Shown: piece by piece, positions 58,041 through 64,000 of the stretch
Position numbering within the stretch: position 1 is the first letter of the stretch
Layout: each line of letters starts with the position of its first letter
Assembly (NCBI GenBank): GCA_016744065.1
Contig: JADGFA010000005.1
Location: 1-64,000 of the forward strand
Reading direction: 5' to 3'
Source: Gammaproteobacteria bacterium
GTDB taxonomy: Bacteria > Pseudomonadota > Gammaproteobacteria > SZUA-229
DNA length: 64,000 nucleotides
Translations under genes and position numbers: made by a program
The notes under the pieces: generated by a model
The model's input: the letters and a program-made list of their open reading frames with translations, nothing else
Databases searched by the model: none
Told to the model about the DNA's origin: nothing

Positions 58041-58064
58041 GCTTTTGCTTGTATTTATGTGAGA

Positions 58065-58091
58065 AAAGGGGCTTTTAGCCCCTTTTTTTTG
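58065..58091 (+). terminator. Intrinsic terminator after pnp
   Basis: AAAAGGGGCT (58065-58074) pairs with AGCCCCTTTT (from 58078) around a short T loop, and a long T run follows. It closes the rimP-pnp operon. Confidence 0.93.
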
Positions 58092-58451: not shown

Positions 58452-58976
58452 ATGCGTAAAACAATATTAACTTTATTAACGATACTGATGCTGAATATAA
58501 CCTCAGCAATAGCCGCCGATGTAACAAAAGAGCAAATCAAGGGTCTTGATGAGCAGGTGCAGGATATTAAAAAAGATGTTATCGACTTAACTGCTGGCCT
58601 GTTGCAGCTCGAAGAAAAATTACTATTCCCATCCAATAGCCAGTTTGCATTATTTGTATCACTTGCCGATCCAGAAGATTTACGTCTGGATGCAATACAG
58701 ATCAAGCTGGAAAATAAAGTGCTGGCTCATCACCTGTATACCTTCCGGGAGCTGGAGGCTATGCAAAAAGGGGGGGTGCAAAAAATATATACAGGAAATA
58801 TAAAAACGGGTGATCATAAGCTCGTGATCAGCTATACAGCAAAAGCAGTCAGTGGTGGTGAAATGAAACGCAGTAGCAGTTATACATTGAAGAAAGGGGT
58901 AGGTCCAAAGTTTGTTGAAATAAAAATAGGTGGGCCGGATGCGGGTGACCAGGGTTTAGAGTTTAAAGACTGGTAG
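58452..58976 (+). CDS. Exported protein of unknown function with N-terminal coiled coil
   Basis: 174 residues. A clear signal peptide (about 1-22, cleavage after AIAA) leads into a heptad-rich helix (TKEQIKGLDEQVQDIKKDVIDL). The rest is beta-rich with IQIKLENKVLAHHLYTF, GNIKTGDHKLVISYTA and a conserved-looking end KFVEIKIG. No catalytic motif is seen. It is followed after 18 bases by a TPR protein gene, so it probably belongs to the same periplasmic assembly. I do not recognise the family. Confidence 0.75.
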   Translation: MRKTILTLLTILMLNITSAIAADVTKEQIKGLDEQVQDIKKDVIDLTAGLLQLEEKLLFPSNSQFALFVSLADPEDLRLDAIQIKLENKVLAHHLYTFRELEAMQKGGVQKIYTGNIKTGDHKLVISYTAKAVSGGEMKRSSSYTLKKGVGPKFVEIKIGGPDAGDQGLEFKDW

Positions 58977-58994
58977 GGCCAGGTTTCAAATTTC

Positions 58995-61028
58995 ATGTTG
59001 CGATTCATTCAATCCATTTTGTTTTTACTGATTGCATTTAATGCAATGGCTGAAAATACTATAAACAAATCTCCTGAGCTCAAGGATATTTTTTATGGTG
59101 AGTCATTATTTTATGCTTTTCAAAATAAACATTTCGATGCTATTAGTAAGCTCGATGCTGAGTTAGGCCAGTTTTATGCTCTGGATAATCCTGCATTAGA
59201 TCCATTTAATCAGCATATCAATCATGCAGAATTCTCTGTGGGTAGTTTTGAACTGGCCTATCGCATGCATCAACGTGCAGGCAGGGCAATCAAAGCGATT
59301 ATGGAGTCCAGCTTAAATCAGGAAATTCGTAATGAAGCGGCTTATCGTCTGGCTCAAATCTATTATCGAAAAAATCAACCTGGTAATGCATTAGATATTT
59401 TAGAAAAAATACAGGGTGAAATGGCAGAAGATTTGCGTGTTGATGAAATTTATTTACGTGCACAGGTCTATATATCAACAGGTAAATTTGCTGAAGCAGT
59501 GACTTTATTAAAATCTATTGAAAATGAAGATAAATATAAAGGGTATATATTATATAACCTGGGTATTGCTTATATACAAAATGGTGAAGAGAAAAAAGGC
59601 ATTGTTGCACTTGGAGAAATGGGCAAAATTAGCAGTGATGAGCGAGGTATTCTGGCTTTAAAAGACAAAGCTAATTTAACGCTCGCGAATCGAATGCTGG
59701 AAAATGGGTCACCTGATCAGGCTAAGCAATATTTTAGTCGCATACGCTTAAATGGGCCATTTGCAGATCGTGCATTATTAGGTCTGGGTTGGGTTAATGT
59801 TTCTCTAGGGCAGTTTAAAAAAGCGCTGGTACCATGGCGTATATTGCATAAGCGTGAAATTACTAATGAGTCTGTTCAGGAATCTATGCTGGCAGTACCC
59901 TATTCGTATAGTCAATTACATTATTATGGTCAGGCCGCTTTATCTTATGGTGAAGCGATGGATAATTTTGGTAGTGAAGTAGATCGCCTTCAGGTTTCAA
60001 TTAAAAGTGTTCGAGAGGGTAAATTTTTAAATGCGATACTGGATAAGCAGGGTGAGCGTGACGAAAACTGGTTACATAATTTAAGGGATTTACAGGAAAC
60101 ACCTGAAACACGCTATATTTTATCTTTAATGGCATCGAATGATTTTCAACAATCTTTGCAGAATTACCATGATCTTGCAGAGCTTCGAATGCGGCTTTCA
60201 TATTGGTTGGCAACACTTGATGTTTATGTTGAATTAATTGAAATACGACGAAAATATTATGAGCCTTTGTTACCTGTTGTTGAAAAACAATTTAAAAAAC
60301 TGGATGCTCGAATACGCTTGCGATTATCTCAACGTGATCGTCTGGATCAACGTTTAAAATCACTGGTTATTTCGCGGCGTCCAGATTATCTGGCGACAGC
60401 AGAAGAGCGTGGAATACAGGATAAACTGGCAGGCATAGAACTTTATCTTTCATCAAACCCTCAACACTATTCAGATGAAGTCCGCCAACGAATTGCTCGA
60501 CTTAAAGGGGTGTTGCACTGGAATATTAATGGCGCATATCATGAGCGATTAACCCATGCATATAAACAAATGAAAACACTGGACGTTTATATTAATACCT
60601 TAAATAAAGCATATAAGTCCTTTATACGAACACGTCAGGCAGCAACGCAAAGTTATGAAGGTTATGATATTCCTATTCGACAATTAAAAACAAAAATCCA
60701 GGCAACACAGGTTAAGGTCGATGGGATTATGGCACGTCAGGGACGATTAATTGAAGCTCTGGCAGTAAATGAATTAGAGCGTAGACGTAATTTATTAGAG
60801 GAATATCAGATTAAAGCTCGGTTTGCCCTGGCTGAGAGTTATGATCGTGCGACTAAAAAACAACAGAAAGCTCAGGAAGATAAATTTTTGCAGAGTAAAG
60901 CATTAAAGGAATCAGCAGAAAAAAATAAGCAGGATTTAAATGTTAAAGATACACAACAAGAACAGTTATTACAGGAGCAGCCAGTAGAGGCCCAACCTGC
61001 TCCAGAAAAAGAAGAGACTGTTCAGTGA
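58995..61028 (+). CDS. Exported TPR-repeat protein of unknown function
   Basis: 677 residues. Signal peptide about 1-19 (AMA before ENT). Residues ~30-330 hold several TPR-like helical pairs (for example NEAAYRLAQIYYRKNQPGNALDILEKI, partly quoted, and GYILYNLGIAYIQNGEEKKGIVAL). The second half is long, charged helices that could form coiled coils (RRKYYEPLLPVVEKQFKKLD). The tail is Gln/Glu/Lys-rich. Its stop overlaps the ATG of the next gene. A scaffold role in the envelope is inferred. Confidence 0.75.
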   Translation: MLRFIQSILFLLIAFNAMAENTINKSPELKDIFYGESLFYAFQNKHFDAISKLDAELGQFYALDNPALDPFNQHINHAEFSVGSFELAYRMHQRAGRAIKAIMESSLNQEIRNEAAYRLAQIYYRKNQPGNALDILEKIQGEMAEDLRVDEIYLRAQVYISTGKFAEAVTLLKSIENEDKYKGYILYNLGIAYIQNGEEKKGIVALGEMGKISSDERGILALKDKANLTLANRMLENGSPDQAKQYFSRIRLNGPFADRALLGLGWVNVSLGQFKKALVPWRILHKREITNESVQESMLAVPYSYSQLHYYGQAALSYGEAMDNFGSEVDRLQVSIKSVREGKFLNAILDKQGERDENWLHNLRDLQETPETRYILSLMASNDFQQSLQNYHDLAELRMRLSYWLATLDVYVELIEIRRKYYEPLLPVVEKQFKKLDARIRLRLSQRDRLDQRLKSLVISRRPDYLATAEERGIQDKLAGIELYLSSNPQHYSDEVRQRIARLKGVLHWNINGAYHERLTHAYKQMKTLDVYINTLNKAYKSFIRTRQAATQSYEGYDIPIRQLKTKIQATQVKVDGIMARQGRLIEALAVNELERRRNLLEEYQIKARFALAESYDRATKKQQKAQEDKFLQSKALKESAEKNKQDLNVKDTQQEQLLQEQPVEAQPAPEKEETVQ

Positions 61029-64000
61029 TGTGGCTTAATATGAAAAAAATATTTTTATATTTAGTGATGGTATTGATTCTTGCCAGTTGCGCCACCAGTG
61101 GCGATAAACAGACGCTGGCAAGTCTTGAAGATGTTGAGCTTGATTTAAAAGAGGCAGAAATTTTAGGTAGTTTAGAAAAAGCAATGGAAAGTTATCAGAA
61201 GTTTCTGGAGGAAACACCGGAAACAGCCATGACTCCTGAGGCATTACGCCGCCTTGCTGACTTAAAGATTGAAAAAGAATATGGCTCAATTAGTAGTGAT
61301 GCATTAGATTCTGCTGTCACGTCTACAGATGTTGCTACAGGAAGCAATGCTACTGCTGGAGCTGCCTTGTCTCCTGATGATAAAAAGACAGAAATTTCAG
61401 ATACAGATATTTCGTCTGAAAACCTCCAAAGCAAAGATAGATCAATTGCAAATACGGATGAATCACGCAAAGAATTTGAAAAGCGCACGACAGAAAAAGC
61501 AGACCTGGAAAAAGGAAAAAATAAAGCTGTTGTAACGACTGATACTGCGGTTGCTGACGACCTGGCTTCAGCGGGCGCTCAGGAAGCCATAGAGTTATAC
61601 AAAGGCTTATTAGTTAAGTACCCCCATTATGAGCGAAATGACCAGGTGTTATACCAGCTTTCCCGTGCTTATGAAGAAGTAGGGAAAGTTGATGAGGCGA
61701 TGTTAGTGTTGAATCGTCTGGTAAAAGAGTACCCAGGTTCAAGACATATTGATGAAGCGCAGTTTAGACGCGCCGAATACTTTTTTACACGTAAAAAATA
61801 TCTTGATTCAGAGGAAGCATATCAGGCTGTGATTGAGTTTGGTGTAAGTTCTGCATTTTATGATCTTGCACTATATAAGCAGGGCTGGGCATTTTTTAAA
61901 CAGGATTTATATGAGGAGGCTTTAAATGACTTCATAGGCTTACTCGATTATAAGATATCAATTGGTTATGACTTTGAGCAGATAGATGACAAGATTGAAC
62001 GTAAGCGTATCGAGGATACATATCGTGTTATCAGTTTGAGTTTTTCATATCTGGGTGGGCCAGAAGAAGTTGTTAAGTACTTTGAAGTTCATGGCCCCAG
62101 ATTATATGAAGCTAGTATATATAGTCACTTAGGCGAATATTATTTAACTAAACGACGTTATGCTGATGCAGCAGGTGCTTATAATGCATACGTTGAGCGA
62201 AATCCATTAAACAAAGTTTCACCTCATTTTCATATCAGGGTAATAGAAATTTATCTAAAGGGTGGTTTTCCAAAGCTGGTTGTTGATTCTAAAAAGAACT
62301 TTGCAACAACCTATGGTTTAAGGGCTAATTATTGGACATTTTTTGATATTAATACGTATCCAGATGTTATTGTTTTCCTGAAAGCAAATTTAACCGATCT
62401 GGCAAATCACTATCATGCATTGTATCAGAACAGACGATTACGAAAATTTAGAAAGGAAAATTTTCTGGAAGCCACTCGTTGGTATCGTGAATTCCTGGAG
62501 TCATTTCCAGAAGATCAGCAGGCGCCGGGTATTAATTTTCAGTTAGCTGAATTATTACTTGAGAATAAAGACTTCAGGGGGGCCGCATTAGAATATGAAC
62601 GAACTTCATATAATTATGAAAAACATAAAAAATCGGCTGAAGCTGGTTATGCGGCTGTATTTGCATATAGAGAGTATTTAAAGAAAGCAGATCAGTCGCA
62701 ACGTAATATAATTAAATATGAAATTATTCGTAGCTCTTTAAAGTTTGGTGAAACTTACCCTAAACATAAGAAAGCACCCGTTGTGTTAGTTGCTGCTACA
62801 GATGATCTTTATGCGATTAAAGATTTTGCTATGGCAATAAAAATAGGCCGTAGTGTAATTGAAAAATACCCTGATATTGAGATTAAATATATACGTTCCT
62901 CCTGGTTAATTGTAGCGCACTCATCATTTGACCTTACATTATACAGTGATGCAGAGTCTGCCTATAGCCAGGTGCTTGGCATGACGGCTAAAAATCATAA
63001 AGAGAGGAGTAAACTAATAGAGAATCTGGCCGCATCTATTTATAAGCAAGGTGAGCAGGCGCGTAAACTTCAGGATCATCGAACTGCGGCAAATCATTTT
63101 TTACGAATTGCTGTTGCGGCACCAACGGCAAAAATTCGTCCAACAGCAGAATATGATGCTGCAGCGGCTTTAATTAGTTTAAAGGACTGGTCCAAAGCGG
63201 CTGAGGTCTTAGAGAATTTTAGAAAGTATTATCCCAAAAATAAATTACAGGCGGATGTTACTAAAAAACTGGCTATTGTCTATAAAGAAGATGGCAAATT
63301 ATTACAGGCAGCAGCAGAGTTCGAGAGAATTGAGAGAGAAACAAAAGACAAAGGGTTGCGACGTGAAGCATTACAGCAAGCGGCAGAGCTTTATGAAAAG
63401 GCTGGTGATAGAAGTAAAGCGCTTAATGTGTATGTTCGATATGTAAAGTACTTCCCTAAACCTGTTGAGAGCGCACTGGAAATGCGTAATAACATTGCAA
63501 ATATCTATAAATTGAATAAAAGTAAAAAACTTTATATTAAACAATTACAGTGGATTGTTGCCATTGATTTAAAAGCTGGAAAAGAGCGCACAGATCGCAC
63601 GCGATTTTTAGCGGCAAGTGCCTCACTTGTTCTTGCTCAGCCTGATATTAGACGATTTAAACTTGTTGAACTGAAAAAACCGTTTAAGAAAAATCTTAAC
63701 TTAAAGAAAAAACGTATGAAAAAGGCAATTTCTACTTTAACCAGGCTGGTTGATTATGAAGTGGGTGTTGTGACAGCGGCGGCTACCTATGAAATTGCAG
63801 AAATATATTATCATTTTAGTCGTGCTTTAATGAACTCTGAACGGCCTGATAATTTAACTGAAGAGCAACTTGAGCAGTATGAGCTAGCGATTGAAGAACA
63901 GGTATATCCATTTGAAGAAAAATCAATTGATGTGCATGAAAAAAATATGGAGTTGCTTGATTTGGGTATTTATAACGAATGGATTGATAAAAGTATTGAT
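61028..64000 (+). CDS. Partial TPR-rich lipoprotein, running off the window
   Basis: The frame is open from the ATG at 61028 to the last base: 991 codons with no stop. A second ATG at 61040 gives the cleaner lipoprotein signal MKKIFLYLVMVLILASC, whose LASC lipobox predicts lipid attachment at the cysteine and probable outer-membrane location. After an Asp/Ser/Thr-rich linker (about residues 90-175) come many TPR-like units: residues about 180-215 (AIELYKGLLVKYPHYERND), 220-250 and onward. The ATG at 61028 overlaps the stop of the previous gene (TGATG), so the two are coupled. The function is unknown; multi-TPR lipoproteins often organise envelope complexes. Confidence 0.85.
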   Translation, partial: MWLNMKKIFLYLVMVLILASCATSGDKQTLASLEDVELDLKEAEILGSLEKAMESYQKFLEETPETAMTPEALRRLADLKIEKEYGSISSDALDSAVTSTDVATGSNATAGAALSPDDKKTEISDTDISSENLQSKDRSIANTDESRKEFEKRTTEKADLEKGKNKAVVTTDTAVADDLASAGAQEAIELYKGLLVKYPHYERNDQVLYQLSRAYEEVGKVDEAMLVLNRLVKEYPGSRHIDEAQFRRAEYFFTRKKYLDSEEAYQAVIEFGVSSAFYDLALYKQGWAFFKQDLYEEALNDFIGLLDYKISIGYDFEQIDDKIERKRIEDTYRVISLSFSYLGGPEEVVKYFEVHGPRLYEASIYSHLGEYYLTKRRYADAAGAYNAYVERNPLNKVSPHFHIRVIEIYLKGGFPKLVVDSKKNFATTYGLRANYWTFFDINTYPDVIVFLKANLTDLANHYHALYQNRRLRKFRKENFLEATRWYREFLESFPEDQQAPGINFQLAELLLENKDFRGAALEYERTSYNYEKHKKSAEAGYAAVFAYREYLKKADQSQRNIIKYEIIRSSLKFGETYPKHKKAPVVLVAATDDLYAIKDFAMAIKIGRSVIEKYPDIEIKYIRSSWLIVAHSSFDLTLYSDAESAYSQVLGMTAKNHKERSKLIENLAASIYKQGEQARKLQDHRTAANHFLRIAVAAPTAKIRPTAEYDAAAALISLKDWSKAAEVLENFRKYYPKNKLQADVTKKLAIVYKEDGKLLQAAAEFERIERETKDKGLRREALQQAAELYEKAGDRSKALNVYVRYVKYFPKPVESALEMRNNIANIYKLNKSKKLYIKQLQWIVAIDLKAGKERTDRTRFLAASASLVLAQPDIRRFKLVELKKPFKKNLNLKKKRMKKAISTLTRLVDYEVGVVTAAATYEIAEIYYHFSRALMNSERPDNLTEEQLEQYELAIEEQVYPFEEKSIDVHEKNMELLDLGIYNEWIDKSID

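What the first reader, a model, noticed from the sequence alone, without database searches (positions are those of the whole stretch)
58452..64000. Three-gene unit of exported coiled-coil and TPR proteins
A signal-peptide protein, a 677-residue exported TPR protein and a lipoprotein with at least 991 residues are adjacent (18-base gap, then a one-base overlap). All are predicted to be in the periplasm or at the outer membrane. None matches a family I can name. In other proteobacteria, large TPR lipoproteins next to such helpers can precede TolQ/ExbB-type motor genes, so the downstream DNA deserves attention. It may be an undescribed envelope machine.
Basis: partly seen in the sequence, partly recalled or inferred. 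Interest (0 to 1): 0.52.

Follow-up and report, generated by a model that had tools for sequence, protein, structure and literature searches.

The report
Gliding-type envelope motor, cargo unknown
The three genes are the start of a nine-gene set for a proton-driven machine spanning the bacterial cell envelope, a relative of the Myxococcus gliding motor already known to exist in such bacteria, and its motor has lost one of the two proton-binding sites that its Myxococcus relatives keep.

Summary
The three genes begin a nine-gene operon running past the window end: P174, GltC-like TPR/coiled-coil protein, GltD-like TPR lipoprotein, GltE-like TPR lipoprotein, small GltF-like protein, TolQ/ExbB-type AglR, two ExbD/TolR-type subunits (AglQ, AglS), TonB-like GltG. 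This is the "core complex" of the Myxococcus Agl-Glt gliding machine, reported in Gammaproteobacteria in 2011 with unknown function, so the machine is not undescribed. The order recurs widely: 54 of 232 class genomes carry GltD, and 53 of 78 GltD loci hold the whole motor plus GltG. Three things look new. (1) The proton-carrying Asp is Asn in the AglQ subunit of 61 of 62 motors, while AglS keeps Asp in 62 of 62 and 8 of 8 myxobacterial motors have Asp in both; the same D28N change is reported to paralyse M. xanthus. (2) Core sets, motor included, are built into type VI secretion clusters in six genomes of five families. (3) Window-type operons are often followed by a giant DUF11/isopeptide-domain surface protein and an OmpA-barrel protein, the best cargo candidate. 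Mechanism, stoichiometry and cargo are inferred.

The parts
58061..58089 (+). intrinsic-terminator-like hairpin and T-run after pnp, separating the unit from the upstream gene
   Evidence: 2 overlapping sites found, 0.3 expected in shuffles
58452..58976 (+). P174: exported 174-aa protein, signal peptide, 33-residue helix, transthyretin/Ig-like beta-sandwich; first gene of the core-complex operon
   Evidence: a homologue is present in 45 of 53 complete loci; one ORF matches both P174 and GltC in the paralogue on contig C35
58995..61028 (+). GltC-like exported TPR + long coiled-coil protein, 677 aa
   Evidence: the family profile matches proteins at the GltC position of myxobacterial clusters at E 1.3e-11 (best) to 1.8e-4
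61025..64000 (+). GltD-like TPR lipoprotein, 1076 aa from GTG 61025 (1071 aa from ATG 61040); runs past the window to contig position 64255
   Evidence: the family profile finds myxobacterial GltD loci (best E 4.5e-61) and 54 of 232 class genomes

Best explanation
The unit is the first third of a nine-gene operon (contig C71 58452-68293) for a proton-motive-force-driven, envelope-spanning force machine: a gammaproteobacterial Agl-Glt core complex. Proposed working: AglR (TolQ/ExbB type) forms the ring; AglQ and AglS (ExbD/TolR type) form a two-subunit axle in which only AglS carries the proton-binding Asp. Proton flow moves the axle. GltG (inner-membrane helix, proline-rich linker, AgmX/PglI-TonB-like tail) carries the force across the periplasm to the TPR/coiled-coil proteins GltC and P174 and the outer-membrane TPR lipoproteins GltD and GltE, with small GltF-like P101. 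These displace a surface or outer-membrane cargo, in the window lineage most likely the giant DUF11/isopeptide-domain protein and OmpA-barrel protein encoded just downstream. SHOWN here: gene content, order, homology, conservation, residue pattern. TAKEN from Myxococcus work: AglR-GltG contact, proton drive, one motor serving alternative outer modules. INFERRED: ring and axle stoichiometry, one active proton site, direction of force, cargo.
For: Downstream genes: MotA_ExbB 4.6e-24, two ExbD 7.8e-17 and 9.1e-15; GltG tail NF033768 68.6 bits against cut-off 40. Four myxobacteria hold two strong AglR hits each (128-160 bits; next best 76), GltD loci, and AglQ and AglS matching ExbD1 (6e-25) and ExbD2 (3e-32) in the same order. 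Whole motor plus GltG in 53 of 78 GltD loci. AglQ Asn 61/62, AglS Asp 62/62. Giant protein directly downstream in 8 of 13 loci with a long GltG. Literature: AglR-GltG two-hybrid and core complex (PMC3169522); AglRQS serving Glt and Nfs, and D28N paralysis (PMC3858216).
Against: No experiment exists on a gammaproteobacterial core complex in the papers seen. TPR similarity (GltE, GltC) is partly generic: GltC matches are weak (1.3e-11 at best) and NCBIfam's GltG and GltE equivalog cut-offs are far from met (58 vs 650 and 31 vs 225 bits). An Asn at the proton site could mean that AglQ is not part of a proton-moving axle at all. The giant protein is separated by about 420 bases with its own promoter-like site, follows only part of the family, and is absent beside the T6SS-type and short-GltG loci examined.
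Confidence: 0.85

Rival explanations
1. The axle is an AglS homodimer (Asp/Asp) as in ordinary Tol/Exb motors; AglQ is not in the axle but is an adaptor or peptidoglycan anchor, so Asn is just a lost site in a retired subunit.
For: A lone ExbD normally homodimerises (recalled; PMC9389320 passages); AglS Asp is invariant (62 of 62).
Against: AglQ keeps an ungapped ExbD transmembrane segment with strong conservation around the Asn and its gene lies between aglR and aglS in the loci listed; a retired site should drift to several residues rather than stay Asn in 61 of 62.
Confidence: 0.3
2. The machine exports or assembles envelope material (for example the giant protein or a polymer) rather than pulling a cargo along the surface, i.e. 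it works like GldLM in type IX secretion.
For: Adjacent giant exported protein and OmpA/barrel protein; other loci lie near two-partner-secretion barrels or T6SS genes.
Against: No sequence link to GldL/GldM/SprA was found in the Pfam or NCBIfam scans (a 31-bit PorW/SprE match, cut-off 250 is what a generic TPR protein gives); in M. xanthus Agl-Nfs is reported to move the polymer after export (PMC3858216).
Confidence: 0.25
3. It is a spare Tol-Pal or TonB energiser for outer-membrane integrity or nutrient uptake.
For: Motor subunits belong to the TolQ/ExbB and TolR/ExbD families; GltG has a weak TonB_C match (E 0.0028).
Against: NCBIfam TolQ/ExbB/TolR equivalog cut-offs are far from met (TolQ 54.7 vs 221 bits); the genome has separate ExbB/ExbD/TonB-like sets; the tail is the AgmX/PglI type; no TolB/Pal or TonB-dependent receptor in the operon.
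Confidence: 0.05

Closest known systems
Agl-Glt core complex (Group B genes gltC, D, E, G + aglR, Q, S) of Gammaproteobacteria, Luciano et al. 2011
   Same: Gene content and clustering; function unknown there too
   Different: Here also P174 and a GltF-like gene in the order p-C-D-E-F-R-Q-S-G; the AglQ proton site is Asn. I could not read their supplementary figures, so whether their species already show this is untested
Myxococcus xanthus AglRQS-Glt gliding machine
   Same: Homologous motor (AglR, AglQ, AglS), GltD, E, G and probably C and F; GltD-E-F-G order
   Different: No GltA, B, H, I, J, K genes in this operon (genome-wide absence not tested); GltG here shows no FHA domain; AglQ Asp28 replaced by Asn; AglR lacks the TM3 Glu seen in 5 of 8 myxobacterial rows
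M. xanthus Nfs (spore-coat) module
   Same: Outer-module genes without their own motor occur beside a motor encoded elsewhere: 9 extra motor-less copies here lie in genomes that also have a complete set
   Different: The copies here carry no GltG; sharing of a motor is not shown
TolQR/ExbBD-TonB 5:2 motors
   Same: Motor family, TonB-like transducer
   Different: Two different ExbD-type subunits, one without the Asp; TPR lipoprotein outer module
GldLM/SprB gliding of Bacteroidota
   Same: Idea of a proton motor moving a giant surface adhesin (recalled; PMC9389320 passages)
   Different: No sequence match found

Membership tests
Agl-Glt core complex (Luciano 2011 Group B) | gltC, D, E, G and aglR, Q, S clustered in one region | tested here: met
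   53 of 78 GltD loci have all four of R, Q, S, G beside GltD
Agl-Glt core complex (Luciano 2011 Group B) | Components are nearest to the myxobacterial Agl/Glt proteins | tested here: met
   AglR profile: two clearly separated best hits in each of 4 myxobacteria, none in a Geobacter relative; GltD loci found; AglQ 6e-25, AglS 3e-32, GltG position 2.1e-26 to 1.2e-11, GltE position 5e-25 or better (TPR, partly generic), GltC position 1.3e-11 at best
Agl-Glt core complex (Luciano 2011 Group B) | An additional gene without homologue in Myxococcales | tested here: inconclusive
   P174 and P101 are the extra genes, but one myxobacterial cluster (L254) matches both (5.3e-7 and 2.7e-3), and P101 resembles myxobacterial GltF (hhalign prob 60, P 8.7e-5)
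NCBIfam GltG / GltE equivalogs (M. xanthus orthologues) | Curated whole-protein cut-off (650 / 225 bits) | tested here: not met
   58.3 and 30.7 bits: homologous domain, not an orthologue by NCBI's rule
M. xanthus gliding machine (full Agl-Glt) | GltA, B, H, I, J, K present | not tested
   Not seen in this operon; no genome-wide search made
M. xanthus gliding machine (full Agl-Glt) | Conserved Asp in both AglQ and AglS | tested here: not met
   AglQ Asn in the window and in 61 of 62 motors; Asp/Asp in 8 of 8 myxobacterial motors
Tol-Pal / TonB-ExbBD | Curated TolQ, TolR, ExbB, ExbD cut-offs and TolB/Pal or receptor partners | tested here: not met
Anti-phage system with MotAB-like motor (Zorya) | PADLOC model match | tested here: not met
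   no match for the motor subunits; one 18-bit TPR match for the 193-aa protein

The most novel reading that the evidence does not exclude
Most gammaproteobacterial Agl-type motors run on an obligate Asn/Asp heterodimeric axle: AglQ fixed the very substitution (D28N) that paralyses its Myxococcus counterpart, the ring carries no acidic residue at the TM3 site, and one proton site per axle does all the work. This single-site envelope motor has been fitted with interchangeable outer modules: a giant surface fibre in the window lineage, and in one clade a complete type VI secretion cluster, which would make those T6SSs the first known to carry a proton-driven envelope motor.
Probability: 0.45. 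Interest if true: 0.82.

Novelty: new variant of a known kind. Interest (0 to 1): 0.62.

Why it matters
Whether both proton sites of a 5:2 motor must work, and whether AglQ and AglS pair with each other, are open questions (PMC9389320 says it is unknown whether AglQ and AglS form hetero- or homodimers). A motor family in which evolution removed one site and kept Asn in 61 of 62 cases makes both directly testable. The T6SS clusters with a built-in core complex suggest that secretion machines can recruit a gliding-type motor. The conserved neighbours give concrete cargo candidates for a machine that stood as 'function unknown' in 2011.

Tried and rejected
Rejected: Tol-Pal/TonB spare (curated cut-offs not met); defence system (PADLOC); three genes as a unit of their own (it is nine genes); co-transcription with pnp (terminator-like hairpin). 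P174 fold: Foldseek against PDB gave no match at E <= 0.001; the VIA-align second look gave only a common transthyretin/Ig-like sandwich (best Z 9.4), so no function is drawn from it. GltC fold: generic TPR superhelices. PDB by sequence: only Tol/Ton motors match AglR and AglS, no Agl structure. Plasmid search for GltD: no match. Rfam on the window: three tRNAs only.

Not followed: I did not name the organism. 16S is 86-87% identical to Proteus, Providencia and Legionella records, so Gammaproteobacteria is inferred. Four GltD hits (G081, G147, two partial in G092) were not fetched. Large GltD ORFs (1415-1518 aa) without a separate GltC may be fusions; not tested. Names of T6SS parts are from Pfam for TssB, C, E, F, G, J, K, L, M, TagF, FHA and VgrG; TssA is from position and recall; TssH is recall with AAA/Clp_N domains; PppA and PpkA are recall with PP2C and kinase domains. 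In the other genomes T6SS genes were recognised by similarity to this genome's own copies. TolR/ExbD/ExbB residue roles are recalled.
Full report
OBSERVATION. One search confirms three same-strand ORFs: 58452-58976 (174 aa), 58995-61028 (677 aa) and 61025 to the window end. The window is contig C71:1-64000 of a 3.88 Mb genome. Reading on the third ORF is 1076 aa, and the set continues without a break: 193-aa TPR lipoprotein, 101-aa exported protein, 220-aa MotA/TolQ/ExbB protein, two ExbD/TolR proteins (163 and 167 aa), and a 453-aa protein ending at contig position 68293. Gene spacing is tight (overlaps or gaps of 0-18 bases, except 113 bases before the motor genes). A terminator-like hairpin separates the set from pnp. 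No terminator-like site was found between the last gene and a giant ORF about 420 bases downstream, and one promoter-like site lies in that gap.

IDENTITY. Pfam gives MotA_ExbB (4.6e-24), ExbD (7.8e-17, 9.1e-15) and TPRs. NCBIfam gives the 453-aa protein the AgmX/PglI C-terminal domain NF033768, 68.6 bits against a cut-off of 40, with GltG next. GltG has one clear hydrophobic segment (residues about 170-190) and a proline-rich stretch after it. Luciano et al. 2011 (PMC3169522; I saw the abstract, passages and sections 6 and 13) define a core complex of gltC, gltD, gltE, gltG, aglR, aglQ, aglS, clustered in non-deltaproteobacteria, function unknown there, with one extra gene. The window operon fits. 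To test this against myxobacteria I reached Myxococcus sp. CA023, Hyalangium versicolor, Sorangium cellulosum and a record titled Comamonas whose MglA is 99% identical to the M. xanthus query. The AglR profile finds two strong hits in each of these four genomes (128-160 bits; the next best is 76 bits); a fifth genome tried, a Geobacter relative, has only a 52-bit hit. The GltD profile finds GltD loci at best E 9.8e-61, 4.5e-61 and 4.5e-61 in three of the four and 7.8e-16 in Sorangium. Family profiles then match AglR, AglQ, AglS, GltD, the GltE position, the GltG position and, weakly, the GltC position. One myxobacterial cluster (L254) has the order P174-C-D-E-P101-G. P101 and myxobacterial GltF share a motif and position (hhalign prob 60, P 8.7e-5), so P101 is probably GltF. 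Luciano et al. had placed the origin of GltF in the ancestor of Myxococcales and Bdellovibrionales.

DISTRIBUTION. GltD relatives: 25 of 40 relatives and 54 of 232 class genomes at least 90% complete. I examined 78 GltD loci from 57 genomes: 53 hold AglR, AglQ, AglS and GltG beside GltD; 2 are partial and 5 lack the motor at a contig end; 18 lack it with room to spare. Of the 53, P101 is present in 53, the GltE-like protein in 50, GltC in 45 and P174 in 45. Of the 18, six are T6SS-embedded (below), one is a shortened GltD without partners (L031), and 11 are P174-C-D copies, some with E and F. All 11 lie in genomes that have a motor elsewhere: in G078 and G198 the motor plus GltG sit in another place, and the other nine genomes have a complete set as well. 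M. xanthus AglRQS is reported to serve both Glt and Nfs (PMC3858216, passages and section 20), so motor sharing is a reasonable but unshown reading. In the paralogue on contig C35 one ORF matches both P174 and GltC.

THE PROTON SITE. In the window AglQ-like protein the transmembrane Asp is Asn24 (MDITTFLNLMVVL), while AglS keeps Asp28. First set: 14 of 14 AglQ have Asn and 12 of 12 AglS have Asp. Wider set: 56 of 57 and 57 of 57. Complete motor triplets: AglQ Asn in 61 of 62, AglS Asp in 62 of 62, AglR residue 163 Val/Ile/Leu in 62 of 62. Eight myxobacterial motors: Asp/Asp in 8 of 8, with Glu (5) or Lys (3) at the AglR site. Window Asn24 aligns without gap to AglQ Asp28. AglQ D28N is reported to abolish proton conductance and paralyse M. 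xanthus (PMC3858216; the original paper is not held, so nothing of it was seen). The one exception, L120, branches first among the gammaproteobacterial motors, and one change explains the pattern even on a tree built without AglQ (SH-aLRT for the 61-row clade: 96 with AglQ, 89 without). The trees are quick ones and L120 is a long branch beside the outgroup, so its place is unsure. Control: of 38 ExbD-family matches in five genomes, 30 loci were read; 12 are Agl-type and 18 are not, and of these 18, 17 have Asp and 1 has Asn. That one is on this genome's contig C35 next to an Asp-bearing ExbD, a second and unrelated Asn/Asp pair; another adjacent pair (G174) is Asp/Asp. PMC9389320 (passages) states that AglQ and AglS both have the Asp in M. 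xanthus and that hetero- or homodimer is unknown; PMC9120999 (passages) suggests AglQ and AglS as two coupled subunits. My reading is a heterodimeric axle with one active site. The rival, an AglS homodimer with AglQ outside the axle, is not excluded.

TYPE VI SECRETION. In this genome a third core set lies in a T6SS cluster on contig C92: AglR-AglQ(Asn)-AglS-GltG follow TssJ-K-L-M-TagF-PppA-PpkA, and GltC-D-E-F lie downstream of the TssA-to-TssH arm, with other genes between (Pfam support). A like layout occurs in G004 (same genus) and, with GltC-D-E-F directly after TssH, in G137, G093, G204 and G236 (AglR cut by a contig end in G236), in five families in all. The five complete T6SS motors form one clade (97). 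P174 was not found in these sets. No paper of the open library was found that links AglR/GltG-type genes with T6SS clusters, or that describes the Asn/Asp pair (13, 16, 39, 51, 105). That library lacks most subscription journals.

CARGO. Directly downstream of the window operon are a 4859-aa protein (DUF11 repeats TIGR01451, 9 stretches; isopeptide-forming domain TIGR04226, 4 stretches), a 1719-aa OmpA-domain protein and a 186-aa barrel-like protein. A related giant follows directly in 8 of 13 loci with a long GltG (435 aa or more), in four families. A ninth locus (L089) has an unmatched 725-aa ORF cut by the contig end; four have none. On the tree the giant group is not one clade (4 changes). 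G004 and G022 also keep a large protein of similar length next (1714 and 1758 aa), and G174 has an OmpA1719 match next. I propose this pair as the cargo, with about 0.35 confidence; it is neighbourhood evidence only. A literature search for such a link gave nothing relevant.

STRUCTURE. P174: pLDDT 85, helix 26-58 then a beta-sandwich, a common fold. GltC: pLDDT 82, TPR superhelix then helices of 78, 37 and 98 residues among others, suited to span part of the periplasm.

VERDICT. An already reported core complex, here shown to have a conserved motor variant, T6SS-embedded copies and a candidate cargo. New variant of a known kind.

Noticed in passing
L008 and L025 (own genome, contig C92: about 35.9-41.0 kb and 71.3-74.0 kb): An Agl-Glt core set (without P174) split over the two arms of a T6SS cluster; like layout in five other genomes
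   Followed up: yes
L007:3815-5899 (-), own genome contig C35: One ORF that matches both P174 and GltC, after a QseC-like two-component pair and upstream of GltD
   Followed up: partly
own genome contig C35:33997-34765 (loci L314, L305): Two adjacent ordinary ExbD genes, one with Asp and one with Asn at the proton site: a second, unrelated Asn/Asp pair
   Followed up: partly
L030:6194-8659 (G004 contig C13): 821-aa protein joining a CHAT protease-like domain to an AgmX/PglI tail (NF033768, 64 bits)
   Followed up: no
own genome contig C71:112160-120488 (L053): Separate ordinary-looking ExbB/ExbD/TonB set downstream of a 707-aa possible outer-membrane receptor (names by eye except ExbD)
   Followed up: no
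L145: Record titled Comamonas sp. KCTC 72670 encodes an MglA 99% identical to that of M. xanthus and Glt/Agl clusters: probably a mislabelled myxobacterium
   Followed up: partly
L109, L111, L121, L138, L139, L141, L142: Motor-less P174-C-D copies are preceded by a roughly 370-430-aa gene and, in several, a thioredoxin-like or barrel-like gene (by eye)
   Followed up: no
L112:16460-18166 and L113:1192-2898: A protein similar to this genome's ShlB/FhaC-type 632-aa secretion barrel lies a few genes downstream of GltG
   Followed up: no
AglR residue 163 (window operon; 62 motors): The TM3 position that is Glu in 5 of 8 myxobacterial AglR rows is Val/Ile/Leu in all 62 gammaproteobacterial motors
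   Followed up: partly
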